From Deltaproteobacteria bacterium (GTDB lineage: Bacteria > Bdellovibrionota > JACOXK01), in assembly GCA_016186995.1 (NCBI GenBank), contig JACPKQ010000003.1:1-64000 (forward strand): a DNA stretch of 64,000 nucleotides. Direction: 5' to 3'. Made by a program: the position numbers and the translations under genes. The first letter of the stretch is position 1. Each line of letters begins with the position of its first letter. A model generated the notes under the pieces. The model had not been told where the DNA came from. It saw only the letters and a list, made by a program, of their open reading frames with translations, and ran no database searches. Shown one piece after another: positions 14,745 to 60,991 of the stretch.

Positions 14745-15493
14745 GGCTGTGTTTGAGTAATTTCAAAAAATATGTTAAAAAACAGGCGATTATGCCTCTT
14801 TCTAAAACCGATACATTAAATGAACTACAAGCACAAATAGGGTATTTTTTTAAGGATCTCGAGCTTCTTAAAAAGTCTCTTACCCATGGTTCTTATTATC
14901 ACGAGAATAAAGATCACTCTTCCCATAACGAAAGGTTTGAGTTTTTAGGAGATGCTATTTTGGGTTTTGTGATTTCTGAAATTTTAATGGATGCTTTTCC
15001 ATTGAAAAGAGAAGGGGATTTATCTCAAATGAGAGCCGCTATTGTGAACCAAAAAACACTAGCAGAGATGGCATCTCAACTCAACTTAGGTGAGTATCTT
15101 TATTTAGGAAGAAGTGAAGAAAAAACAAATGGTAGAGAGAAGCCCTCTATTTTGGCTTCTGCTGTTGAGGCTCTTATAACAGCTATTTATAAAGATGGTG
15201 GATTTGAAGAAGTAAAGCTGTGTATCCAAAACTTGTTTTTAAATATTGTTAAAAAAATTGAGACAGAGTATGAAGTTATGGACTCTAAATCAAAGCTTCA
15301 ACAACTTTTACAAGGACGTTTTAGAATGGTTCCTTCCTATCACATTGTATCTCAAGAGGGGCCTGATCATCAAAAAACTTTTGAAGTGAAGCTTACGTTC
15401 CAAGGCAAAGAGTTAGCAAGAGGTAAAGGTAAAAATAAAAAAGAAGCAGAGTGCCAGGCAGCACGCCTTGCACTTGAGAGTATAGAAATATGA
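14732..15493 (+). CDS. rnc: Ribonuclease III
   Basis: HNERFEFLGDAILGFV signature; C-terminal dsRBD; true start may be the Met at about 14792. Confidence 0.93.
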   Translation: MDPLGLCLSNFKKYVKKQAIMPLSKTDTLNELQAQIGYFFKDLELLKKSLTHGSYYHENKDHSSHNERFEFLGDAILGFVISEILMDAFPLKREGDLSQMRAAIVNQKTLAEMASQLNLGEYLYLGRSEEKTNGREKPSILASAVEALITAIYKDGGFEEVKLCIQNLFLNIVKKIETEYEVMDSKSKLQQLLQGRFRMVPSYHIVSQEGPDHQKTFEVKLTFQGKELARGKGKNKKEAECQAARLALESIEI

Positions 15494-16824
15494 TTTACCC
15501 AAAGGTGGCTATTATCGGAAGACCTAATGTCGGCAAGTCCACCTTATTCAATCGTATGGTTAAGGGAAGAAATGCTATTGTTGGAGCTGAGGCAGGCATT
15601 ACCCGAGACCGCCATGATGCTTTTGTTTTTTGGAAGACAAAAAAATTTCAGATCATGGATACTGGTGGTATTGAGCCTACTGCGTCTCTAGATCTTGATC
15701 TTCTCATGCAAAAGCAAGTAGAACTTGCTTTAAACGAAGCAGAGCTTGTTTTATTTTTGCTTGATGGAAAGTTTGGAGTTCATCCTACAGATAAAATAAT
15801 TGCTCAGAGTTTAAGAAGAAAAAAGAAAAAAGTTTTGTGGGTTATCAATAAAGTAGATGTACCCAGGCTCGAACCAGATCTTTACGAGTTTTATGAGTTG
15901 GGAACCGATGCTTTTTATTATATTTCTGCAGAGCATGCTTTGGGTATTGAACAGCTTTTAGATGATATTGTAGAGGGACTTCCAGAAAGTAAGGAAGAGG
16001 AAAAGATAGAAGAAGAAGTGAAAATTGCACTTGTTGGGCGGCCTAATGTGGGTAAATCAACTCTTGTAAATAAGCTTTTGGGGCAAGAAAGATGTTTGGT
16101 AAGCCCGGAAGCGCTTACAACACGAGATGCTATTGATACTTATCTTGTACGAGACCATGTTCTTTTTACGCTTATTGACACAGCAGGTATTCGAAAAAGA
16201 AATAAAGTAAATACAGATTTAGAGTTTTATGCAACCACTCGAAGTGAAAAAGCGATCAAGAGAGCAGATGTTGCATTTCTTTTGATTGATGCAGAAGATG
16301 GTATTGTTGAACAAGATTTAAAAATTGCGAACTCTGCCATTGAAGCAGGAACTTCACTTATGATTCTTGTGAATAAATGGGATCTTATCCACAAAGATAC
16401 AAAAACCGCTCAAGAGTTTGAAAAGGACTTTCGATATAAGTATCCACAATTTCATTGGGTGCCTCTTATTTTTCTTTCTGCTTTAACAGGGCAACGTGTT
16501 CATAAACTTTTAGACATGTCCCTTGGAATTCTAGAAGAAAGAAGGAAGCGTCTTACAGGAGATGTACTTAAATTATTTTTAGAGAGAAAACTGGAAGAAC
16601 TTTCTCCACCTTTTTATCGTGGGAAAAAACCTCGTATTTCAAAACTTTCTCAAATGGATGTTTCTCCGCCTTTATTTTATTTTAAAACAAATCCAATCAA
16701 TAGTATTAAGGATTCTTATAAGCAGTATCTCCAAAATGCGCTTCGTGATGAGTTTGGATTTCGGGCTACGCCTTTAAAATGTGTTTTTCGAAAAACTATT
16801 CATCACCGTCCCTATCATTCTTAA
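15490..16824 (+). CDS. der: GTPase Der (EngA)
   Basis: Two G1 motifs (GRPNVGKSTLFN, GRPNVGKSTLVN), two DTAG/DTGG boxes, NKWD. Confidence 0.95.
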   Translation: MIYPKVAIIGRPNVGKSTLFNRMVKGRNAIVGAEAGITRDRHDAFVFWKTKKFQIMDTGGIEPTASLDLDLLMQKQVELALNEAELVLFLLDGKFGVHPTDKIIAQSLRRKKKKVLWVINKVDVPRLEPDLYEFYELGTDAFYYISAEHALGIEQLLDDIVEGLPESKEEEKIEEEVKIALVGRPNVGKSTLVNKLLGQERCLVSPEALTTRDAIDTYLVRDHVLFTLIDTAGIRKRNKVNTDLEFYATTRSEKAIKRADVAFLLIDAEDGIVEQDLKIANSAIEAGTSLMILVNKWDLIHKDTKTAQEFEKDFRYKYPQFHWVPLIFLSALTGQRVHKLLDMSLGILEERRKRLTGDVLKLFLERKLEELSPPFYRGKKPRISKLSQMDVSPPLFYFKTNPINSIKDSYKQYLQNALRDEFGFRATPLKCVFRKTIHHRPYHS

Positions 16825-16856
16825 CCATTTTCCCTGTCACGCCTCAAGTGCTTTCC

Positions 16857-16965
16857 CTGTCACCCTGAACAGCCCTTCTGTCACCCTGAACAGCCCTTCT
16901 GTCACCCTGAGTGTAACGAAGGGTATAATCATGAAGTATATTCTTCGCGTTGCTCAGAATGACAG
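16857..16965. repeat. 21-bp tandem repeat plus inverted-repeat element
   Basis: CTGTCACCCTGAACAGCCCTT about 2.6 copies (16857-16911), last copy folding with CTCAGAATGACAG (16953-16965). Confidence 0.8.
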
Positions 16966-17146
16966 CATTCGAGTCTATGTCAAAAAATGGTTGCCATCTG
17001 GAGCGTAAGTCAAGCGCAGCCAATGTTTTCAAATATTCAGAATTTCGGATCCCGGACAGTGCTTGAGCACTTACGGGATAATGAAGAATCCGGTATGACA
17101 AGTGTAGCGAGCCATGAAGCGGAAGATAGTAACCATTTTTAAGAAC
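16960..17146. repeat. Structured dispersed repeat, copy A
   Basis: Aligns almost gaplessly with 33189-33376; conserved hairpin ATCCCGGACAGTGCTTGAGCACTTACGGGAT (17049-17079); outer stem AAAAATGGTT../..AACCATTTTT. Confidence 0.85.
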
Positions 17147-17261
17147 TGACAACAGAAAATGCTGGGATGGCAGAGTACTTTTTGGATGCAACTAAGATTT
17201 TGACTTGCATCTCTGTGTTAAATTTGTAGAATGAAATCTTTTCTAGATTTTGGAGGCCTAT

Positions 17262-18740
17262 ATGTCTTTACGAGAACGTTGGGGAAGTCGATCTGCTTTT
17301 GTGATGGCAGCTATTGGAAGTGCTGTCGGATTAGGGAACGTATGGAGATATCCTTATGTTGTGTACAAAAGCGGGGGTGGGGCTTTTCTCATTCCTTTTC
17401 TTGTTGCCCTTTTAACGGCCGGAATCCCTCTTATGATTCTCGAATATTGGCTGGGTCAAAGAGCACAAGCAGGGGCTCCACAGTCACTTAAAAAAACACA
17501 CAAAAATTTTGAATGGGTGGGCTGGTGGGCTCTGATGGCTGCACTCATTCTTACTTTTTATTATGCGGTTGTAATGAGTTGGTGTTTTAATTATTTGTAT
17601 TATGCATGGAGTCTTCCTGAATGGTCCCCCAATGCTAAAGATTTCTTTTTTGCAAAAGTTTTACAAGTGTCTTCAGGGCCCTTTGATTTTGGCGAGTTTC
17701 CTTATGTGGCTTGGCCTGTTGTTATGGGTTTAGCCATTTCTTGGATTTCTGTTTATTTAATTATTTGTAAAGGGGTGGCACGAGTCGGAAAAGTTGTTTT
17801 GATTACTGTACCTCTGCCTGTGATACTTTTATTAATACTTGTCATCCGTGGTATGACATTGGATGGATCGGGGGAAGGGCTTAAGTTTTTTTTAGAACCT
17901 AATTTTGCTGCACTGAAGGATCCAACAATTTGGCTTTCTGCTTATGGGCAGGTTTTCTTTTCTTTAAGTCTTGGCTTTGGAACTTTAATTGCTTATGCAA
18001 GCTATACACCTAAAAATTCAGATATTACAAATAATGCTTTTATTGTTTCTTTAGCAGATTGCGGCATTAGTTACATGGCGGGTTTTGCTATTTTTAGTAC
18101 ACTTGGATATCTTGCTTTTTCTCAAGGCCTTCCTGTTCAAGATGTTGTTTCTAAAGGCCCTGGACTTGCTTTTATTGTTTACCCAACAGCTCTCAGTCTT
18201 ATGCCTTTGGGTGCTATTTTGGCTGTTCTTTTTTTCATTATGCTTTTGACCCTAGGAATTGATTCACTTTTTTCAATGGTTGAGGGTGTTATTGCAGGGG
18301 TACACGATAAATGGGGTTTTTCTAAAGGAAAGCTTGTGGGGCTTTATTGTATTTTTGCATTTATGATGGGGTTACTTTTCGCATCCAAGGCGGGGCTTTA
18401 TTGGTTAGATATTATTGATCATTTTGTGACTGAATACACACTTCTTCTTGTAGGACTCTTTCAGTGTGTTGCTGTTGGATGGTTTTCCAATATTAGCCAA
18501 GCAAGACAAGAAATTAACAAACAAAGTGATTTTTCGTTAGGAATCTGGTGGGAGCTTTGCATTAAATATATAGCTCCAGTGATATTGGTAGCTATTTTAG
18601 GATCGAGTCTTTATCAAGAACTTCAAAAACCTTATGAAGGTTATCCTTCTCAAGCTTTAGCCATTGGAGTGGCTATGACAGCATCGGCTTTTTTAGCCGG
18701 CTGGCTGTTTGCTTCACTCAAAGGAAGACATCATGAATGA
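17262..18740 (+). CDS. Sodium:neurotransmitter symporter (NSS/SNF) family transporter
   Basis: AIGSAVGLGNVWRYPYVVYKSGGGAFLIPF signature; start at MSLRERWGSR behind GGAGG. Confidence 0.92.
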   Translation: MSLRERWGSRSAFVMAAIGSAVGLGNVWRYPYVVYKSGGGAFLIPFLVALLTAGIPLMILEYWLGQRAQAGAPQSLKKTHKNFEWVGWWALMAALILTFYYAVVMSWCFNYLYYAWSLPEWSPNAKDFFFAKVLQVSSGPFDFGEFPYVAWPVVMGLAISWISVYLIICKGVARVGKVVLITVPLPVILLLILVIRGMTLDGSGEGLKFFLEPNFAALKDPTIWLSAYGQVFFSLSLGFGTLIAYASYTPKNSDITNNAFIVSLADCGISYMAGFAIFSTLGYLAFSQGLPVQDVVSKGPGLAFIVYPTALSLMPLGAILAVLFFIMLLTLGIDSLFSMVEGVIAGVHDKWGFSKGKLVGLYCIFAFMMGLLFASKAGLYWLDIIDHFVTEYTLLLVGLFQCVAVGWFSNISQARQEINKQSDFSLGIWWELCIKYIAPVILVAILGSSLYQELQKPYEGYPSQALAIGVAMTASAFLAGWLFASLKGRHHE

Positions 18741-29386: not shown

Positions 29387-32300
29387 ATGGCTTCTTTTTC
29401 TTTAAATCATAAAAAAATTTTAGTGAGATCTCTCATTTTTGGGGGTGTGTTTCTTGCTATTATTTTTTCATTTCTTATTCTACTTAACATTCTAGTGAAT
29501 CCTGATCTTTGGAAGGGAAAACTAGAAACTTTTTTAAAAACTTATGTCACAGCAGAAATAAGTCTCGGTGATTTTAAGTTTCAAACACTCAAGGGTTTAG
29601 GGCTTGAAATTGATAATGTCGAGGTTGTTCAAAATGAAAAGAAAGTTTTTTCCACTCGAAAATTAAAGATTCTTCTCTCCCCACGTTCTGTTTTAAGATT
29701 TCGTCCATCATGGCGTATTGTCTTTGAAGAACCTCAAGCTTTTTTAAGTTTAGGACGGGACGACCGATTTAATTTTTCTGATCTCATTAAAATACAAAAA
29801 ACAAGAACAGAAGAAAATGAAGAAAAAAAAACAAGCCTTGTCATGAAGTTTTTGGCGGCCTCTGTTTTTGATTTTCATTTTAATAATGGAAAGTTTGATT
29901 TTGTGAATGAGAAAAAAAATCAAAGTGTACACTTAGAAAATTTTTCTTTGGATCTCACTCGAATGGGTATTGATCAGGAAATTGGAATTCAGTTGAAGGG
30001 GGTACTGAGTCCCTTTAAAGATTTTGGGGTGAGTTTAGCAGGAGAATCAGAATTTTCTGGAAACGTACGGTTGCTTTCGCTTTCCCCTTTGAAATTTCAT
30101 ACAGCAGGCTCTTTTAATTTAGATAAAGTAAATATCACTTATCAAGAAGAGCTTTTTTCAAAGCCACTAGGTAGTAAACTTTCTTTTTACTCTTCCTTGA
30201 CGGTGGAAGAATTTCAAAAATATTTAGGAGAATTTCATATTGGACTTGAAGGGGTGAATATTTTAGGAAAAATCGAAGAGGATGAAGTTCTTGTTGAGAC
30301 AAATTATTTTGTTGCCGAGAGTCTTAAAAAGTTTCTAAAACCTCTTGAAGTTCTTGATATTTCCGGAGGGGTGCAGCTTAAGCTTTCTTTAAAAGGAGAG
30401 GGATTTCAAAAAAGAAACCTTAACCTCATTACAGATAATGTTTATTTAAAAATACCACCTATTCTAAAAGGTGCTCACATTGAAGAAAAAGTGAAGGTTA
30501 ATGGCCACTATGAAGTAGATCTTGAAGGGGTTGAAATTCAGAAATTAAAAGGTACGGGTGGTGTTGATTTAACACGCGCAAAAATTGTTTACGAAGGTGA
30601 TCCTAAAAAAACTTATTTTAAAAAAGAACCTATGGTTCCCTTGTTCGCACAAGGGGAATTTCAATATACTCAAGAAAGTGGCATTTTTTTTAAAAAACTA
30701 GAAGCCCAGTTGGATCAGTTTTCTTTTCTTATTTCTAAGGAAGCTTATTTTAAAGATTGGAACCATAAAAAAATATCCCTTGAAACTTCACAGCTTGATT
30801 TTGAAAAACTTGCGCTCTTTTTCCCAACTATTCAGGGAATGAAGATAGAACAAGGTATTTTAGAACCCACGGTCTTTGAGTTTGATAATACTCAGTTAAG
30901 ATCTCATATTGTTTTTCATAATATAAGAGGAGATGTTTCTGCACTTCCAAAACTTTCTCAAAAAACTTTCATTCAAAAAGGATTCTTTGGCCTCACTGGT
31001 GAAGCCCACATTGAACTTGATGGAAATACACTTACTTATTTTGATGGCAAAGTTTACTCTGATTTAGACAAAGTTCATTTTCAATATGGCGACTATTTCC
31101 AAAAATCAGACAATCAATCACTTAAAATTGAATCAGAAGTTTCCTTGAAGGGAGAGAAATGGATGACCCAAGGAAAGCTTAAATTCAGGGATTTTGGGGT
31201 TTCTTTAAGTGGGGAAATGTTTAATGAATTTTTAAAAATTCATTTTGTAACAAAAGAAGTTCATGTTGAAAATGTTTCTCAATTAAGCCCTTTTTTGAAG
31301 GATTATGATTTAAGACAGGGGTTACTTGATTGTGAAGCGAGTATTACTGGAAATATTCGAGGTCCATTTGTTCAGATAGATGGGGCTCTTCATAAAGTTC
31401 AAGGTAAAATAGCCTCGAAAAAAGAATTGGCTCCAGGGCTTAACATACAAGGGCCTTTTTTTGTAAACTCTGATTTTAAAGTAGTAACAGATCAAAAAAG
31501 TACTCAGATCAAGTCTTTAAAAGTTGAACTTTTTTTAAATACTTCAGAGATTGAATATAAAAATTTATTTAAAAAGAAAAAGGATGAAGATTTAGAGTTA
31601 AAACTCATGGCTTCCCAAGAAAATGGAAAAACACTTATTCAGGAAGGAGATTTAAAATTTAAAAATATTCCTTTTAAGATTGGGGGTTCTATTACAGATC
31701 TTAAAAAAGGTATTTTTAATCTTTCAGTTGCTTCAAAAATTTCTGATATGAGTGTTTTGCATTCAACTATACCACAACTTAAAGAAATGGAAGCTCAGGG
31801 TGAAATAGTTTTTTCCGGGACGGTACAAAAAAAATCAGAGGAGGAAAAAATAAAGTTCAAACAGGATATCACTCTTCAAAAAGCTTCCTTAAAATTAAAA
31901 GGCTTGCAACCCCGACTTCACAATATTCAAGGTAGTTTTACTTTGGAAGATAAAGCCTTAACAATTAAAAACCTTCAAGTACGGGCAGCTGATTCTGATC
32001 TGACAGTTTATGGAGATTTAAAAGATATAGATCATCCTAAAGGAAGCTTTTCATTTCACTCAGATTTTTTTAATTTTGATAAAGTATTACAAGGTGACGA
32101 AAAAAGAAAACCCAGCACTCAAGAAAAAAGCGATAGCATGGGTATTGTCGAAACCCTAAAAACTGCACCTTTTTTCAAAAACCTAGATGTCTCAGGAAAA
32201 ATTGATTTTAAAAAAGGTATTTTAAGCCAGTTTCAGTTTGAAGATTTTTCTGCCTCGCTTTCTTTGAAGGGGCTTGTTTTTAATCTTACAAAATTGAGTA

Positions 32301-32923
32301 CTAAAACTTATGGTGGAAAGATAGCGGCAACTACAATGATTCGTTTTACAGATGTTAAGCCTTCTTATGTTTTTGAAGGTGCTGTAGCAGATTTAGATTT
32401 GCAAAAATTCATTGCTGTTAAAAATGAGAAATTGAGTGATGAAATTCAAGGAAAGTTTTTTACACGCTGTATTGTAAGTGGAGAGGGTGTCCTTTGGGAA
32501 CATTTTGTAAGCAATGCCCAAGGTAGTGGGGAGCTCATCATTAAAGATGGTAAGTTTTCACATCTTAACATTATAAAATCTGTTTTAGATACTTTAAAGG
32601 TTTTTGGAGCCCAAATTCCTTCTGATTTAGATATCTCTGGAAATTATGAAAAGTTACAGGGCAATTTTGTTTTAGAGAAAGGAAATATCAAAACTGATAA
32701 TCTGCGTTTAGATGCAAGAGATTATTATGTTACTTTAGATGGTATTTATAATTTAGATACAAGTTTGGATTATAAAGGAAGATATAATTTTAAAAGAAGA
32801 GGATTTGGGTTTCCTATCTATGTCGACATTACAGGAACTTTAAACAAACCCGAAGTTCACCCCGATGTTCAGGAGTACCTTAAAAACATCATTACCAACG
32901 TCATTACAGACATCTTTAACTGA
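29387..32923 (+). CDS. AsmA-like envelope protein
   Basis: 1178 aa, N-terminal TM, beta-rich repeats, AsmA-type C-terminus (SGELIIKDGKFSHLNIIKSVLDTL). Confidence 0.8.
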   Translation: MASFSLNHKKILVRSLIFGGVFLAIIFSFLILLNILVNPDLWKGKLETFLKTYVTAEISLGDFKFQTLKGLGLEIDNVEVVQNEKKVFSTRKLKILLSPRSVLRFRPSWRIVFEEPQAFLSLGRDDRFNFSDLIKIQKTRTEENEEKKTSLVMKFLAASVFDFHFNNGKFDFVNEKKNQSVHLENFSLDLTRMGIDQEIGIQLKGVLSPFKDFGVSLAGESEFSGNVRLLSLSPLKFHTAGSFNLDKVNITYQEELFSKPLGSKLSFYSSLTVEEFQKYLGEFHIGLEGVNILGKIEEDEVLVETNYFVAESLKKFLKPLEVLDISGGVQLKLSLKGEGFQKRNLNLITDNVYLKIPPILKGAHIEEKVKVNGHYEVDLEGVEIQKLKGTGGVDLTRAKIVYEGDPKKTYFKKEPMVPLFAQGEFQYTQESGIFFKKLEAQLDQFSFLISKEAYFKDWNHKKISLETSQLDFEKLALFFPTIQGMKIEQGILEPTVFEFDNTQLRSHIVFHNIRGDVSALPKLSQKTFIQKGFFGLTGEAHIELDGNTLTYFDGKVYSDLDKVHFQYGDYFQKSDNQSLKIESEVSLKGEKWMTQGKLKFRDFGVSLSGEMFNEFLKIHFVTKEVHVENVSQLSPFLKDYDLRQGLLDCEASITGNIRGPFVQIDGALHKVQGKIASKKELAPGLNIQGPFFVNSDFKVVTDQKSTQIKSLKVELFLNTSEIEYKNLFKKKKDEDLELKLMASQENGKTLIQEGDLKFKNIPFKIGGSITDLKKGIFNLSVASKISDMSVLHSTIPQLKEMEAQGEIVFSGTVQKKSEEEKIKFKQDITLQKASLKLKGLQPRLHNIQGSFTLEDKALTIKNLQVRAADSDLTVYGDLKDIDHPKGSFSFHSDFFNFDKVLQGDEKRKPSTQEKSDSMGIVETLKTAPFFKNLDVSGKIDFKKGILSQFQFEDFSASLSLKGLVFNLTKLSTKTYGGKIAATTMIRFTDVKPSYVFEGAVADLDLQKFIAVKNEKLSDEIQGKFFTRCIVSGEGVLWEHFVSNAQGSGELIIKDGKFSHLNIIKSVLDTLKVFGAQIPSDLDISGNYEKLQGNFVLEKGNIKTDNLRLDARDYYVTLDGIYNLDTSLDYKGRYNFKRRGFGFPIYVDITGTLNKPEVHPDVQEYLKNIITNVITDIFN

Positions 32924-32956: not shown

Positions 32957-33191
32957 TCATATAAAGTTACCTAGTATATTTTTCAGGCACAGCGGTTGTT
33001 TTTCCCTGCGAGAAAAACACCGCACGCCTCTCGGCCTCGCTCTTTTTTACTGTATAGGAAAGGCTAACTTAACTACAGGAGTCACTTTTTTATGAATCAT
33101 TTTTGTGAAACTAAAAAATGATTCATAAAAGCCTAGGGCCCGCTTAGGCCTCCGAGACGGCCTTCAAAACATACTAGGTAACTTTATGTGA
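32957..33191. repeat. MITE-like element with about 26-bp imperfect terminal inverted repeats
   Basis: TCATATAAAGTTACCTAGTATATTTT at left, AAAACATACTAGGTAACTTTATGTGA at right; internal hairpins 32992-33023 and 33092-33126; no ORF. Confidence 0.75.
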
Positions 33192-33376
33192 CAGAATTTG
33201 AGTTTATGTAAAGCTAACCTTTCAAATTTTGCGGAAGTAAAGCGCAGCCTACGGTTCGTAAATATTCAAAACTGTGTATCCCGGACAGTGCTTTAGCACT
33301 TACGGGATCAAGAAGAGTTCATGTTGGATAACTACAGCGAGCCATGAAGCAAAATTTAGGAAGGTTAGCAAGAACC
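33189..33376. repeat. Structured dispersed repeat, copy B
   Basis: Aligns to 16960-17146; inner hairpin ATCCCGGACAGTGCTTTAGCACTTACGGGAT (33278-33308); outer stem GCTAACCTT..AAATTTTGC / GCAAAATTT..AAGGTTAGC. Confidence 0.85.
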
Positions 33377-33464
33377 TAAGTATCGGAAACAAAACACCCA
33401 GTCCCAACTCTCTCATGGATAACTGTAACTTGAAAAGTTGTGTAAATTATGAAAGATATAAAGC

Positions 33465-34307
33465 ATGCCTTCATGGTTTAAAGAGATCCAAACCCCCAAA
33501 ATCAAAACCCGAAATGAAGTTTCAAAAATACCTCAAGGAGTGTGGGTTAATTGTTCTCGTTGTCGAGAGATCATTCATAAAGAAGATTTAAAAAAACATC
33601 TTTTTGTGTGCGTGAAGTGCAATTATCATTTTCGTGTTTCTGCTTATCAAAGAGTAGAAATGCTTTTAGATAAAAATTCTTTTCAAGAATATGATCAAGA
33701 TTTAACCTCACCTAATCCACTTAATTTTGAAGATAGTATGACTTATGAAGAGAGGCTTCAAAAGTCAGAGAAAAAAACAGGGTTAAAAGATGCTATTGTA
33801 ACAGGGTATGGCACAATTAATGGGGGAGAAGTTCTCATAGGCGCTTTTGATTTTAGTTTTATGGGCGGCAGTATGGGGCTTGTTGTAGGTGATAAAATTG
33901 CACGTCTTTTTGAAAAGGCAATACTCACAAAACTTCCTGTTATTATTATTTCTTCTTCAGGAGGAGCGCGTATGCAGGAAGGGATTATTTCTCTTATGCA
34001 AATGGCAAAAACACTGGCTTTATTGTCCCAATTTCGAAAAGCAAAAAGGCCTTTTATTTCTGTTTTAACAGACCCAACAACAGGGGGGGTGGCAGCAAGT
34101 TTTGCAATGAGAGGAGATATTATTTTAGCAGAGCCTGAAGCTCTTATTGGATTTGCAGGGCCTCGAGTCATTGAACAAACAATAAAACAAAAGTTACCTC
34201 AGGGTTTTCAACGGGCTGAGTTTTTGCTTGAACATGGCATGATTGATATGATTGTTGACCGAACTGAGCTTAAAACTCAACTTTCAAAACTTATCAAAAT
34301 GCTGTAG
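33465..34307 (+). CDS. accD: Acetyl-CoA carboxylase carboxyltransferase subunit beta
   Basis: C4 zinc motif CSRC...CVKC; SSSGGARMQEGIISLMQMAKT; DPTTGGVAASFAM. Confidence 0.95.
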   Translation: MPSWFKEIQTPKIKTRNEVSKIPQGVWVNCSRCREIIHKEDLKKHLFVCVKCNYHFRVSAYQRVEMLLDKNSFQEYDQDLTSPNPLNFEDSMTYEERLQKSEKKTGLKDAIVTGYGTINGGEVLIGAFDFSFMGGSMGLVVGDKIARLFEKAILTKLPVIIISSSGGARMQEGIISLMQMAKTLALLSQFRKAKRPFISVLTDPTTGGVAASFAMRGDIILAEPEALIGFAGPRVIEQTIKQKLPQGFQRAEFLLEHGMIDMIVDRTELKTQLSKLIKML

Positions 34308-54471: not shown

Positions 54472-54556
54472 GCCGGGGTGGCGGAACTGGCAGACGCGCA
54501 TGACTTAGGATCATGTGGGTTATCCCGTGAAGGTTCAAGTCCTTTCCCCGGCACCA
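54472..54556 (+). tRNA. tRNA-Leu, anticodon TAG, encoded CCA
   Basis: GCCGGGG/CCCCGGC acceptor, CATGA-CTTAGGA-TCATG anticodon arm, GGTTCAAGTCC T-arm, CCA encoded. Confidence 0.94.
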
Positions 54557-54588
54557 CTTCCGCGTTTTAAATTCACCTAGTTCTTCCT
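54531..54588. repeat. Direct repeat, tRNA 3' end plus element left end, copy 1
   Basis: Identical to 54739-54796. Confidence 0.93.
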
Positions 54589-54676
54589 CATATTTAAACA
54601 AACATCCCATACCGCCTTCTCTAGGTTCGATCTTCGCCTTTCAGGCTCGTTCTCACGAAGAGAAGGTCTCCAGCTG

Positions 54677-54764
54677 CTATTCTAAAATTCAGATGCTCTT
54701 ATTCATCGCATCTTCATTAAGAATAGCTACGCTTCCGTAGGTTCAAGTCCTTTCCCCGGCACCA
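54677..54764. repeat. Direct repeat, element right end plus tRNA 3' end, copy 1
   Basis: 86/88 identical to 59470-59557. Confidence 0.93.
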
Positions 54765-54780
54765 CTTCCGCGTTTTAAAT

Positions 54781-55002
54781 TCACCTAGTTCTTCCTGAAG
54801 TTTGAGATTTTTGGGCATCGCTATTATAAAGAGCAATCAAGCGATTTTTTTCTCTGTTAAAACGATCGATTAAATCGTTTTCTGTTATGCCTTCAAATGT
54901 AACTTGGTTTAGATCAATACCTGTATGATATAATTCAATAAGTAGCCCGGAAACAAATGACTGGGTGAAGGATCGAACGCCTTTGAAATCTAAATGTGTC
55001 AC
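54781..55002 (-). CDS. Small DUF4325/STAS-like protein
   Basis: LDFKGVRSFTQSFVSGLL pattern; preceded by an HATPase C-terminal fragment. Confidence 0.5.
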   Translation of the reverse strand: MTHLDFKGVRSFTQSFVSGLLIELYHTGIDLNQVTFEGITENDLIDRFNREKNRLIALYNSDAQKSQTSGRTR

Positions 55003-55616: not shown

Positions 55617-56213
55617 ATGGGAACAAATGAATTAAGAAAAAGAAAAATTTGGCAAGATTCCAGCGGAAGAAAAGCAGGAGTCGCAGAAAAAAAATTTTAC
55701 GAAATATTGTCGAAAGAGTTTAAAGGCTCGAACTTTAGAGTGCGCTCAAAGCCAAAAGAATTTAAAAATATCTACTCTAAAATAAAACTCAGTGATGAAG
55801 TTTTAGCAAATATTTATAACCCAGATGAAACATGGATACATGGAGTAATTCCAGATTTCGCTATAGATAATCTCAAAACTAATAAAACACTATACGTAGA
55901 AGTCAAAAGGCAGGATGGGTGGGTAGAAGGAAAACCCCGTAAGGCGGGTAGAGGAAATGCGCATGAGAGATCATGTAAGTTCTTCACGCCAGGATTACTA
56001 AAAATACTGAGAGAACACGGGAAGCTTGGTAACGATGTTTTACCATTTTGGATTGTCTTTCAAGGTGATATTGCACGTGATCCAAAACGTGTAAGAGAAA
56101 TACATTGCTGGTACACTGGGTATTCTGCCAACTTTTTTTTGTGGAGTAATTCAGCAGATCACAAATCTCTAGTTAATCATTTTAATAAGAAACTAAAAAA
56201 TCTGTTAACTTAA
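55617..56213 (+). CDS. Type II restriction endonuclease, MunI-like
   Basis: PDFAI...EVK (PD-ExK spacing), KRQDGWVEGK, AGRGNAHERSCKFFTPGLLK, GDIARDPKRVREI resemble remembered MunI sequence. Confidence 0.88.
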   Translation: MGTNELRKRKIWQDSSGRKAGVAEKKFYEILSKEFKGSNFRVRSKPKEFKNIYSKIKLSDEVLANIYNPDETWIHGVIPDFAIDNLKTNKTLYVEVKRQDGWVEGKPRKAGRGNAHERSCKFFTPGLLKILREHGKLGNDVLPFWIVFQGDIARDPKRVREIHCWYTGYSANFFLWSNSADHKSLVNHFNKKLKNLLT

Positions 56214-56945: not shown

Positions 56946-57055
56946 AGTTTTTTATTCAAGCAAGCTAAATTTTCTCAATACGACGCAACTTAAAATGTGG
57001 TTTGTGTTCACATTTCGATCAAGAAAAACTCCAAAATTCCGAAAAGAAGAGAAGG

Positions 57056-58564
57056 ATGAAAAACCTCACAAAAACCAAATATGTGAAAGGTGTGCGGTGC
57101 TTAAAGGCACTGTATTTGAACGTTTATCAGCCTGAGCTTGGAAAAGAGCCTGATGAATCTCAAAAAATGATTATGGCGCAAGGACAAGCGGTGGGAGAGT
57201 TTGCAAAAAAAGAATTTAAAGGTGGGGTTGATATTTCAAAGTCGGATGGAAAGTTTGATGAACAGGTTCGCTTGACGAAAGAGGCTTTGAAAAAAGATGT
57301 ACCCGCTATTTTTGAAGCTACTTTTTTGCATGAGGGTGTGCTTTGTAAAGTGGATATTTTGGAAAGAACAAAAAAGGGCTGGAATTTAATTGAGGTGAAA
57401 TCTTCGACCAAAGTTACTGAAGAGCATATTCATGATGTAGCCGTTCAGTATGCTGTTTTAAAAGGGGCTGGGATTCAGGTTGAGCGCGCATATTTGATGC
57501 TTGTCAATACAGCGTGTATTTATCCTGATTTATCCAATTTTTTTAAAAAAGAAGATGTCACAAAAGAAGTTGAAATGAAACTTTCCGAAGTTAAAGGGAA
57601 TCTCAAAAAACAATTTGATGTTTTAAAATCTAAGCGTGAGCCCAAAATTGATATTGGGGAGTATTGCTTAAAATTTCCTGGGAATAAAAAGCCACGCGCG
57701 TGCGAATTTAAAGAACATTGTTGGAAGCATATCAAAGAAAATTCTGTGTTTGAACTTTATCGTCTTAAAAAAGAAAAACAGTTTGATTTGTACACTTCTG
57801 GCGTGCTTCAGATTAAGGCTTTACCCAAGGGGTATAAGTTAAATGCCATGCAGGAAAGACAAGTTGAGGCTGTTTTCTCCAAAGCGCCTTATATGGATAA
57901 AGCTGGAATCGGGGATTTTCTAAGTCAAATTGAATATCCCGTGCATTATTTAGATTTTGAAACTGCAAATCCAGCCATTCCCAGGTTTAAGGGCATACAC
58001 CCATACGAGCATATCCCTTTTCAGTTTAGTTGTTTTGTGCGTGAGGAAAATGGAAATCTTTTATATCGGGAATTTCTACAACTTGGAACAAACGACCCCC
58101 GTGAGGCACTTTTGAAAGCACTTTTAGAGGGTATTCAAAATCGAGGATCAATCTTTGTTTATAATGCCGTGTTTGAAAAAAGAATTTTAAAAAGTTTGGC
58201 AAAATCGTTTCCAAAGTATGAAAAAAAGATAAATGGGATTATTGAACGTATTGTAGACATGATGGATATTTTTTTGAACTATTATTATCATCCAGATTTT
58301 CATGGCTCCCTAAGCTTAAAAAAAATCGTGCCTGTTCTTGCCCCCTCTCTTTCATACGAAGGCATGGAAATTGCTGAAGGAGGATCAGCCAGCGCTGCTT
58401 ATATGCGAACGCTCACAGAAGACCTCTCCGAAATCGAAATCAGCGCGATTGAAAAGAATTTACGTGAATATTGTAAGAAAGACACGCAAGTCATGGTAGA
58501 AATCCACGACTTTTTTTTAAATCTTTTGTCAGATAAAAAGCAGAAAAAACAATGTCTAAAATAA
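57056..58564 (+). CDS. DUF2779-type putative nuclease (PD-(D/E)XK plus DnaQ-like exonuclease)
   Basis: KVDILERTKKGWNLIEVKSSTKV and VHYLDFETANPAIP...YNAVFEKRIL...YCKKDTQVMVEI; start after GAGAAGG. Confidence 0.8.
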   Translation: MKNLTKTKYVKGVRCLKALYLNVYQPELGKEPDESQKMIMAQGQAVGEFAKKEFKGGVDISKSDGKFDEQVRLTKEALKKDVPAIFEATFLHEGVLCKVDILERTKKGWNLIEVKSSTKVTEEHIHDVAVQYAVLKGAGIQVERAYLMLVNTACIYPDLSNFFKKEDVTKEVEMKLSEVKGNLKKQFDVLKSKREPKIDIGEYCLKFPGNKKPRACEFKEHCWKHIKENSVFELYRLKKEKQFDLYTSGVLQIKALPKGYKLNAMQERQVEAVFSKAPYMDKAGIGDFLSQIEYPVHYLDFETANPAIPRFKGIHPYEHIPFQFSCFVREENGNLLYREFLQLGTNDPREALLKALLEGIQNRGSIFVYNAVFEKRILKSLAKSFPKYEKKINGIIERIVDMMDIFLNYYYHPDFHGSLSLKKIVPVLAPSLSYEGMEIAEGGSASAAYMRTLTEDLSEIEISAIEKNLREYCKKDTQVMVEIHDFFLNLLSDKKQKKQCLK

Positions 58565-59469: not shown

Positions 59470-59557
59470 CTATTCTAAAATTCAGATGCTCTTATTCATC
59501 GCATTTTCATTAAGAATAGCTACGCTTCCGTAGGTTCAAGTCCTTTCCCCGGCATCA
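59470..59557. repeat. Direct repeat, element right end plus tRNA 3' end, copy 2
   Basis: 86/88 identical to 54677-54764. Confidence 0.93.
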
Positions 59558-59560
59558 TTT

Positions 59561-60991
59561 TTATGGTTTCCAGATGTTGTCTTCATCCCCATTGACACCC
59601 ATAAGGTAGATAAGATCTTCCTCTTCTTCAAAGTTAGATTGAGTGAGGTTTTGGAGTATTTTTTGGTAAGAACGTGTTTTTCCTTCTAAGAAATAATCGA
59701 GAAAAGCAAAAGTATTAGGAACTGAAGTAGTGCTATATGTTGGAAGCCCTGATGTAATAATTTCTAAATTGTGAGTTCCCCCTTTTTTTGTAAAAAATTG
59801 TCCTTTGAAATAAGGATAGGTGCTACATCCGTTAAAAAAGTAAATTTGGTATTTGTCTTTATTAAATTGAATATCTTGAAAATCACGAGAGGTGAGATCA
59901 AGGTTACCCCCTAATCCTGAATGGCCATCATAAAGAATAATATCTGCATTTTCAAAAGCAGGTTTGACGTAATAGTGAAAAGTATAATCTTTAGATTCAA
60001 TAGAGGTATCTGTAAGAAGAATTTGTATTCTTATGTTTAAAGGTGTTTTAAGTTTGGAAGTGCTAGTTTTTTCTAACTGAGTTAAAAAATTAAGCCCTTG
60101 AGCAAAACTATTTTTTCCATCTCGGTTGCCATCTCTGTAAACGCGAAATAATTCTTTTTCAACAATTTTTTTAAACCCTCTTGATTGAAGTTCCTTAATG
60201 ATTGTTCGATAGGCTTTATAAGCATCATCTTTTTTTCTACGTTTGACCCTTTTTGAATTTTCAAAATTGTGAACATCCACATCATCCATGTATCCAAAGA
60301 AAAGTGCTATATCGAGTGTTTCCCCGTTTCCATTATCACTATAAAGTTTGTCATATTCTGGGTAAGAAAGTTTTGTGCTTTTTTTTCTCTTAAGCCTTCC
60401 TTGTGTGCGAACAACATTGATGTTGTCTTTTTTAAGCCGACATTGTGGTAAATCTGGGTCCCAAAAATACCAGAAATCTTCTTTTGAATTATACTCTCTA
60501 TCCGTGCAAGGATTGAACTTTTTAGAAAAACTGAGGTCATAAATTTTATCAGGTTCAAGGGGAAGTTTAATAGGAACTTTTCTTATAGCTCTCTTATAAC
60601 TTTTGCCTCCAAAAGCTTCTTTGTCGAAAACAACAGTTCCTTCAAAATCATAGTGAATTTTTTTACGTTGTGGATCACTCGTGTTTTCTATTTTTTTAAA
60701 AGTGACTTTATAGTGATGATTTTCTCCTAAAACACCCTTATAACCAAATTCTTTGTAAAATGATTCAGATTGAAACGCACCTACAAGGTAATCGAGTTGT
60801 TGTTCAATAATGGGAAGTGTTTCATGTCGATCGCCTTCGTTAAGTTTTAAAAAATTAATATCGCTTGCAAGCGCTTCAAGAACTGTACTAAAAGTAAGAG
60901 TTGCCTCTGTTGATCGCAATCCATAATAACTATGTGACAAAAAGGGAATCAAGCAAAGAATGAAGATACCTATGCGAAACATATACTTCAT
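59561..60991 (-). CDS. Secreted protein with caspase/gingipain-like His/Cys motifs
   Basis: Signal peptide; ADIILYDGHSGLGG and YQIYFFNGCSTYPYFKG resemble a clan CD dyad. Confidence 0.55.
   Translation of the reverse strand: MKYMFRIGIFILCLIPFLSHSYYGLRSTEATLTFSTVLEALASDINFLKLNEGDRHETLPIIEQQLDYLVGAFQSESFYKEFGYKGVLGENHHYKVTFKKIENTSDPQRKKIHYDFEGTVVFDKEAFGGKSYKRAIRKVPIKLPLEPDKIYDLSFSKKFNPCTDREYNSKEDFWYFWDPDLPQCRLKKDNINVVRTQGRLKRKKSTKLSYPEYDKLYSDNGNGETLDIALFFGYMDDVDVHNFENSKRVKRRKKDDAYKAYRTIIKELQSRGFKKIVEKELFRVYRDGNRDGKNSFAQGLNFLTQLEKTSTSKLKTPLNIRIQILLTDTSIESKDYTFHYYVKPAFENADIILYDGHSGLGGNLDLTSRDFQDIQFNKDKYQIYFFNGCSTYPYFKGQFFTKKGGTHNLEIITSGLPTYSTTSVPNTFAFLDYFLEGKTRSYQKILQNLTQSNFEEEEDLIYLMGVNGDEDNIWKP

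What the first reader, a model, noticed from the sequence alone, without database searches (positions are those of the whole stretch)
16960..17146. Structured dispersed repeat (about 187 bp) with a compensating outer stem
Aligns almost gaplessly to 33189-33376: TGACAG.ATT.GAGT.TATGT, AAGCGCAGCC, AAATATTCA, ATCCCGGACAGTGCTTnAGCACTTACGGGAT, GAAGA, AGCGAGCCATGAAGC. The outer stem arms differ between copies (A: AAAAATGGTT.C.ATCT with AGAT.GTAACCATTTTT; B: GCTAACCTT..AAATTTTGC with GCAAAATTT...AAGGTTAGC), yet each pairs internally. Divergent arms with retained pairing is what selection on a fold would leave, suggesting a structured RNA family or a hairpin-recognised mobile repeat. I do not recognise it.
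Basis: seen in the sequence. Interest (0 to 1): 0.82.

Follow-up and report, generated by a model that had tools for sequence, protein, structure and literature searches.

The report
REP-like mobile hairpin with invariant core
The repeat is one of about 41 copies in this genome of a hairpin-shaped DNA element, whose stem letters keep changing in matched pairs while a short internal core stays the same; the same core sits in 20 to 70 scattered hairpins in other, mostly uncultured proteobacteria, so this looks like an undescribed family of small mobile palindromes.

Summary
The two window copies belong to a family of about 41 copies in the 1.68 Mb source genome. The outer stem covaries strongly: 13 of 16 pairs change on both sides, and 98% of cells are paired.

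The core GAAGTAAAGCG...GAGCCATGA, closed by an unrelated-looking but self-complementary stem, also occurs in two same-class genomes and in many Gammaproteobacteria. There the basic element is a sharply bounded hairpin of about 83 nt: roughly 24-27 bp of P1, the core, and a tip usually of three bases. Some genomes have 20-70 copies. Copies of one genome share only 40-65% of arm letters yet stay 86-95% Watson-Crick paired. G:T outnumbers A:C 169 to 20, so one named strand folds. In two well-sampled genomes copies sit at gene 3' ends, mainly between convergent genes (50 of 79).

It resembles REP elements but lacks the GTAG/CGTC tag, and no Y1/RAYT gene is needed or linked. It matches no Rfam family at gathering score. 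Best reading: a new REP-like mobile hairpin family, mobilised in trans by an unknown factor. A structured-RNA role is not excluded.

The parts
16968..17151 (+). Copy A, whole element (composite form with long tip), between der (15490-16824) and a sodium-dependent transporter gene (17250-18740)
16983..16999 (+). Copy A, 5' arm of outer stem P1 (AAAAATGGTTGCCATCT)
   Evidence: sequence; covariation
17000..17021 (+). Copy A, 5' core strand (GGAGCGTAAGTCAAGCGCAGCC; family consensus GGAGCGGAAGTAAAGCGCAGCC)
17049..17079 (+). Copy A, inner hairpin in the tip (ATCCCGGACAGTGCTTGAGCACTTACGGGAT), an addition peculiar to this genome's family
17107..17120 (+). Copy A, 3' core strand (GCGAGCCATGAAGC)
17124..17140 (+). 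Copy A, 3' arm of outer stem P1 (AGATAGTAACCATTTTT)
   Evidence: covariation
33197..33381 (+). Copy B, whole element, between an AsmA-like gene (29387-32923) and accD (33465-34307)
33213..33232 (+). Copy B, 5' arm of P1 (GCTAACCTTTCAAATTTTGC)
   Evidence: covariation
33231..33249 (+). Copy B, 5' core strand (GCGGAAGTAAAGCGCAGCC)
33278..33308 (+). Copy B, inner tip hairpin
33337..33350 (+). Copy B, 3' core strand (GCGAGCCATGAAGC)
33349..33369 (+). Copy B, 3' arm of P1 (GCAAAATTTAGGAAGGTTAGC)
   Evidence: covariation

Best explanation
A family of non-autonomous, REP-like mobile palindromes. SHOWN: the basic unit is about 83 nt. It has a P1 stem of about 24-27 bp with fast-changing but compensated sequence, then a nearly invariant internal-loop core (5' GAAGTAAAGCG / 3' GAGCCATGA), then two G-C pairs and a short tip (usually a triloop such as GCA, GTA or GAA). 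One named strand is the one that folds. Copies are dispersed, sharply bounded and intergenic. The window genome carries a composite form whose tip holds a further hairpin and which amplified to about 41 copies. INFERRED: the strand with GAAGTAAAG folds as single-stranded DNA, a trans-acting protein recognises core plus stem, and the hairpin is cut or copied and pasted, surviving best just behind stop codons. The protein was not identified.
For: About 41 copies in the window genome and 20-70 in several proteobacterial genomes. Patchy spread: 65 of 150 relatives of one Woeseiaceae genome, 4 of 387 of its class sample including that genome, 7 of 149 around a Coxiellaceae genome, 6 of 243 of the window's phylum, five of them in the window's own class. 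Conservation stops at the stem ends. Covariation in P1: 26 of 26 pairs change on both sides, 544 cells (whole structure) against 128 in shuffles, in 79 copies found without requiring an exact core. Within genome G059 arm identity between copies is 0.40-0.65 (0.22-0.32 when shifted) while 86-95% of pairs within a copy are Watson-Crick. G:T 169 against A:C 20 in P1. In two genomes 50 of 79 copies lie between convergent genes (108 of 657 adjacent pairs are convergent) and most ends lie within about 15 nt of a stop codon. A syntenic junction in a relative lacks the element and is 11 nt instead of 102. Composite forms with other repeats in the window genome.
Against: No transposase or other partner was found: Y1_Tnp and reverse transcriptase families do not track the element. 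No target-site duplication was identified. The element's strand shows no bias relative to GC skew (20 to 23). Gene pairs that carry the element in several genomes can be read as descent as well as repeated insertion. Stems stay paired even in copies with very different arms, which a decaying parasite would not show unless each copy is selected or its arms are repaired from each other. In the window genome copies prefer the upstream side of genes, not convergent gaps. No movement was observed.
Confidence: 0.55

Rival explanations
1. A structured RNA element: the core-bearing strand acts in transcripts (3' ends in Gammaproteobacteria, gene-upstream regions in the window genome), for instance as a processing, stability or termination signal bound by a protein; mobility is secondary.
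For: G:T pairs exceed A:C eight-fold and one stem position is most often U:G; the inner loops can be read as tandem G:A motifs, replaced by Watson-Crick pairs in variants (GAAATAAAG..CATTC); 24 of 32 window-genome copies lie upstream of a gene read in the same direction.
Against: In tandem gene pairs of G059/G067 the folding strand is antisense 18 times and sense 8 times. No conserved sequence, promoter or U-tract outside the stem. No Rfam family at gathering score; only weak sub-threshold hits to unrelated families with relaxed thresholds.
Confidence: 0.22
2. A host-selected boundary or terminator hairpin between convergent genes, kept at each site by selection, that only looks mobile because it is old and multi-copy.
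For: 50 of 79 between convergent genes, ends at stop codons; several orthologous junctions carry an element in two to four genomes; stems stay paired despite divergence.
Against: Only about 4-5 of 30 relatives carry a recognisable copy at each of two tested orthologous gene ends, the rest having nothing or other hairpin repeats. G095 and G062, whose flanking protein is 95% identical, carry copies with unrelated arms and opposite orientation at the same site, suggesting separate insertions. No U-tract.
Confidence: 0.13
3. A classical GTAG- or CGTC-tagged REP mobilised by a RAYT (Y1) transposase.
For: Same size class, strand-specific hairpin, stem irregularity and gene-3'-end location as described for REPs (PMC3733652, PMC8266576). 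Y1_Tnp is somewhat commoner in carriers (46 of 65 against 43 of 85, p=0.019, not corrected for relatedness).
Against: No GTAG or CGTC enrichment at either end. 19 of 65 carriers and the window genome lack PF01797. None of the 12 Y1 loci read has the core nearby.
Confidence: 0.05

Closest known systems
REP elements (GTAG/CGTC-tagged repetitive extragenic palindromes) with RAYT/TnpA_REP
   Same: Short intergenic hairpins in tens to hundreds of copies, mostly between convergent or co-directional genes, with a strand-specific fold and an irregular stem (PMC3733652, PMC8266576)
   Different: About 83 nt rather than 20-50; no GTAG/CGTC tag; conserved part is an internal core near the tip; stem sequence free to drift; no linked Y1 transposase
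REPINs / BIMEs (paired inverted REPs)
   Same: Close pairs in inverted orientation, always with 5' ends facing: 6 pairs, plus 5 further pairs in other genomes
   Different: Most copies are single; the pairs looked at have different arms and cores
MITEs / miniature inverted-repeat elements
   Same: Small, non-autonomous, palindromic, dispersed
   Different: Arms are not a constant transposase-recognised sequence; no target duplication found; no cognate transposase
Rfam structured RNA families
   Same: Nested helices with strong covariation and G:U wobble preference
   Different: No family reached its gathering score at these copies in the window

Membership tests
REP (GTAG/CGTC type) | Unpaired GTAG or CGTC tetranucleotide at one end | tested here: not met
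   7 and 3 of 85 for GTAG at the two ends, the same as in control windows; CGTC 1 and 5 against 7 and 3
REP (GTAG/CGTC type) | Short palindrome in many intergenic copies, favouring convergent and co-directional gene gaps | tested here: met
   50 convergent, 26 tandem, 3 divergent of 79 (length of about 83 nt exceeds the 20-50 nt of REPs)
REP (GTAG/CGTC type) | RAYT/Y1 transposase gene in the genome, often flanked by the repeat | tested here: not met
   absent from G000 and from 19 of 65 carriers; no core at the 12 Y1 loci read
REP (GTAG/CGTC type) | Strand-specific recognition of a folded single strand | tested here: inconclusive
   G:T 169 against A:C 20 shows which strand folds; protein recognition not testable here
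MITE | Target-site duplication and conserved terminal inverted repeats of a transposase | tested here: inconclusive
   arms are inverted repeats but variable; no conserved flank or ends beyond weak GGC/GCC; duplications were not searched systematically
Structured RNA family | Covarying helices | tested here: met
Structured RNA family | Expressed as RNA with consistent orientation to genes or its own promoter | tested here: inconclusive
   orientation mixed; no shared promoter outside the stem; no RNA-seq available
Any Rfam 15 family | Score at or above the gathering cut-off | tested here: not met
   only two tRNAs in the window; only weak sub-threshold hits in relatives' copies

The most novel reading that the evidence does not exclude
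A previously unknown hairpin replicator with its own, non-Y1 recognition protein: each round of movement or repair copies one arm from the other (snap-back synthesis), which would explain stems that are almost perfectly paired, have sharp ends and differ so much between copies around a fixed core. The core can also sit inverted between otherwise similar arms (L065 against L136).
Probability: 0.2. Interest if true: 0.8.

Novelty: new variant of a known kind. Interest (0 to 1): 0.56.

Why it matters
Known REP elements carry a fixed tag cut by a known transposase. Here a core near the tip is the fixed part, the stem is free to drift as long as it pairs, and no tag or known transposase accompanies it, in lineages ranging from Gammaproteobacteria to the window's own phylum. 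If movement is confirmed, it points to an unrecognised protein acting on folded single-stranded DNA; if an RNA role is confirmed, it is a sizeable undescribed RNA family. It also supplies a ready covariance model for annotating currently unexplained intergenic hairpins in many environmental genomes.

Tried and rejected
RAYT/Y1 link: rejected by presence, neighbourhood and tag tests. Reverse-transcriptase link (PF00078): present in 3 of 14 carriers and 3 of 12 other relatives, no association. Intrinsic terminator: no T-rich tail and no terminator-like site at either window copy. Arms taken wholly from the target site: suggested by several G004 copies, but arms in G059 and G067 share a weak consensus along their whole length, so not adopted. 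Phage or plasmid carriage: no match in phages, plasmids or viral contigs. Replication-strand bias: none. Literature: no held paper contains the core strings in a relevant context. The exact 18-mer scan forces core identity, so core invariance was judged on model hits instead.

Full report
WHAT WAS CHECKED. A blastn search of the source genome (G000, 1,683,499 bases in 30 contigs) with copy A gives 43 matches, E down to 5.6e-94, copy B among them at 2.6e-20. Collecting these gives 41 copies, a few truncated, and shows that the repeat runs from about TTCGAGTTTATGT to AAGAACTTAAG, i.e. 16968-17151 and 33197-33381 in the window. The leading TGACAG is not part of most copies. Neighbouring sequence differs and often consists of other repeats, so copies lie in mosaics.

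COVARIATION IN THE WINDOW'S OWN FAMILY. In 36 full-length copies a named structure (outer stem, a GC/GC pair block, inner hairpin) pairs 98.0% of cells; shuffles give 88.6% and slid partners 23-45%. Seventeen pairs change on both sides (7.5 in shuffles), 85 cells against 18, none of 500 shuffles reaching either. Stem variants include AAAATGGTTACTATCT, GCTAACCTTTCAAATTTT, GGAAATGGTCAGTGTCT, GGAAATGGTCTATGTCT and GAAATGGTCTCAAGTCT, each with its matching 3' arm.

THE SAME CORE ELSEWHERE. An exact 18-mer scan of GTDB genomes hit 66 contigs, and 45 hits also have the 3' core strand within 150 nt. Minimal example (L099, Woeseiaceae): gacacgcgcgctccggtaggtgttca-GCGGAAGTAAAGCGCAGC-gca-GCGAGCCATGAAGC-tgaatacctaccggagcgcgggtgtc. 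The plain element is thus a hairpin with a very short tip, usually three bases; the window genome carries a derived form in which the tip holds about 100 nt with a further hairpin (ATCCCGGACAGTGCTTTAGCACTTACGGGAT). Some window-genome copies instead carry ACTGGATCCCGGATAGTGCTTCGCACTTCCGGGATGACAG there, resembling other dispersed hairpins beside copies, which suggests one repeat nested in another (inference).

MODEL AND SPREAD. A covariance model R1 was built from 33 elements. Copies per genome at E<=0.001: 70 (G067), 62 (G059), 42 (G066), 40 (G071), 36 (G064), 34 (G063), 23 (G062), 16 (G004), 6 (G002). Only part of the candidates is scored, so these are lower bounds, and the long-tip G000 form is mostly missed by R1 (7 hits). 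Spread: 65 of 150 relatives of G062, 4 of 387 genomes of its class sample, 7 of 149 around G064, and 6 of 243 in the window's phylum, five of them in the window's own class. None in phage or plasmid records or viral contigs.

ANATOMY. Sequence conservation ends at the stem ends, about 24 bases from the core, with weak GGC/GCC ends and nothing beyond. In 79 copies found by the model, without requiring an exact core, in 40 regions of 20 kb, all 26 P1 pairs change on both sides (544 cells over the whole structure against 128 in shuffles) and 94.5% of cells pair. The core is nearly invariant; where it varies, partners follow: C27-G for G27-C, A-T or T-A for the tip pairs, G-C for the tip pair, and GAAATAAAG..CATTC in place of GAAGTAAAG..CATGA. 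In G059, 5' arms of different copies are 40-65% identical by position (22-32% when shifted), whereas 86-95% of positions within a copy are Watson-Crick pairs. In P1, G:T pairs number 169 and A:C 20; the ratio holds in the lower-scoring half (95 to 11), so it is not a score artefact. The strand bearing GAAGTAAAG is therefore the one that folds.

GENE CONTEXT. With a hexamer-trained ORF caller on these regions of G059 and G067, 50 of 79 copies lie between convergent genes (108 of 657 adjacent pairs there are convergent), 26 in tandem pairs (8 sense, 18 antisense) and 3 in divergent gaps; most ends lie 0-15 nt from a stop codon. The regions were picked because they hold copies. Six close pairs in these two genomes face each other with their 5' ends; five more pairs in other genomes do the same. 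In the window genome the habit differs: 24 of 32 copies lie upstream of a gene read in the same direction.

DESCENT OR MOVEMENT. Several orthologous gene junctions carry an element in two to four genomes. In one set (L065 and L136, arms similar) the core is inverted between the arms. On the other hand, G095 and G062, whose flanking protein is 95% identical, have elements with unrelated arms and opposite orientation at the same spot. Looking at the 3' ends of two genes, each first noticed beside the element, across 30 relatives each shows recognisable copies in 5 of 30 and 4 of 29, with a remnant or weak copy besides; the rest have nothing or other hairpin repeats such as TGTAGGAGCGG...CTCCTACA. 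One syntenic junction is 102 nt with the element and 11 nt without, the element beginning next to the stop codon. Both inheritance and repeated insertion at favoured sites are therefore likely.

WHAT IT WORKS LIKE, AND WHAT IT IS NOT. REPs are strand-specific hairpins with GTAG or CGTC tags, found mainly between convergent and co-directional genes and linked to RAYT transposases (PMC3733652, PMC8266576). This family shares size class, placement and strand specificity, but no tag is enriched at either end, PF01797 is absent from G000 and from 19 of 65 carriers, and the Y1 loci read hold no core. A modest co-occurrence (p=0.019, uncorrected for relatedness) is noted. Reverse transcriptases do not track it either. 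No Rfam family matches at gathering score.

VERDICT. A real, multi-copy, strongly covarying hairpin family, best read as an undescribed REP-like mobile palindrome with an unknown trans-acting partner. An RNA role remains the main rival; neither movement nor a binding protein nor transcription was shown.

Noticed in passing
window 16835-16965: A different repeat family abuts copy A: CCCTGAGTGTAACGAAGGGT and ATATTCTTCGCGTTGCTCAGAATGACA, short hairpins of the type stem-TGAG(C/T)GNA(A/G)CGAA-stem, with tandem TCACCCTGAACAGCCCTTCTG units. Their tip resembles the tip of the element reported here.
   Followed up: partly
window 32957-33191: Inverted repeat with arms of 32 nt, 171 nt apart (TCATATAAAGTTACCTAGTATATTTTTCAGGC), directly upstream of copy B; the CCTTCAAAACATACTAGGTAACTTTATGT part also precedes other copies (L036, L033, L023), so copies lie in composite repeats.
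   Followed up: no
window 54531-54803 and 59470-59596: Direct repeats of 65-91 nt that begin within the 3' part of the tRNA gene at 54472-54553 (AGGTTCAAGTCCTTTCCCCGGCACCA) and recur at 54739 and 59532, bracketing a MunI-type restriction enzyme gene (55617-56213) and a DUF2779/Cas4-like gene (57002-58564): possibly the scar of an element integrated at a tRNA.
   Followed up: no
L322, L324 (3' end of the gene tested): Orthologous gene ends without the element carry other hairpins such as TGTAGGAGCGGTTCCTGAACCGCGA...CTCCTACA, which look like GTAG-type REPINs using the same sites.
   Followed up: no
L184 1501-1582 and 1621-1698: A facing pair of hairpins that share AGCGCAGC-GNA-GCGAGC with the family but have a different outer core (CGACCATAGCG..GAGCACGGGGA): a possible sister family.
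   Followed up: no
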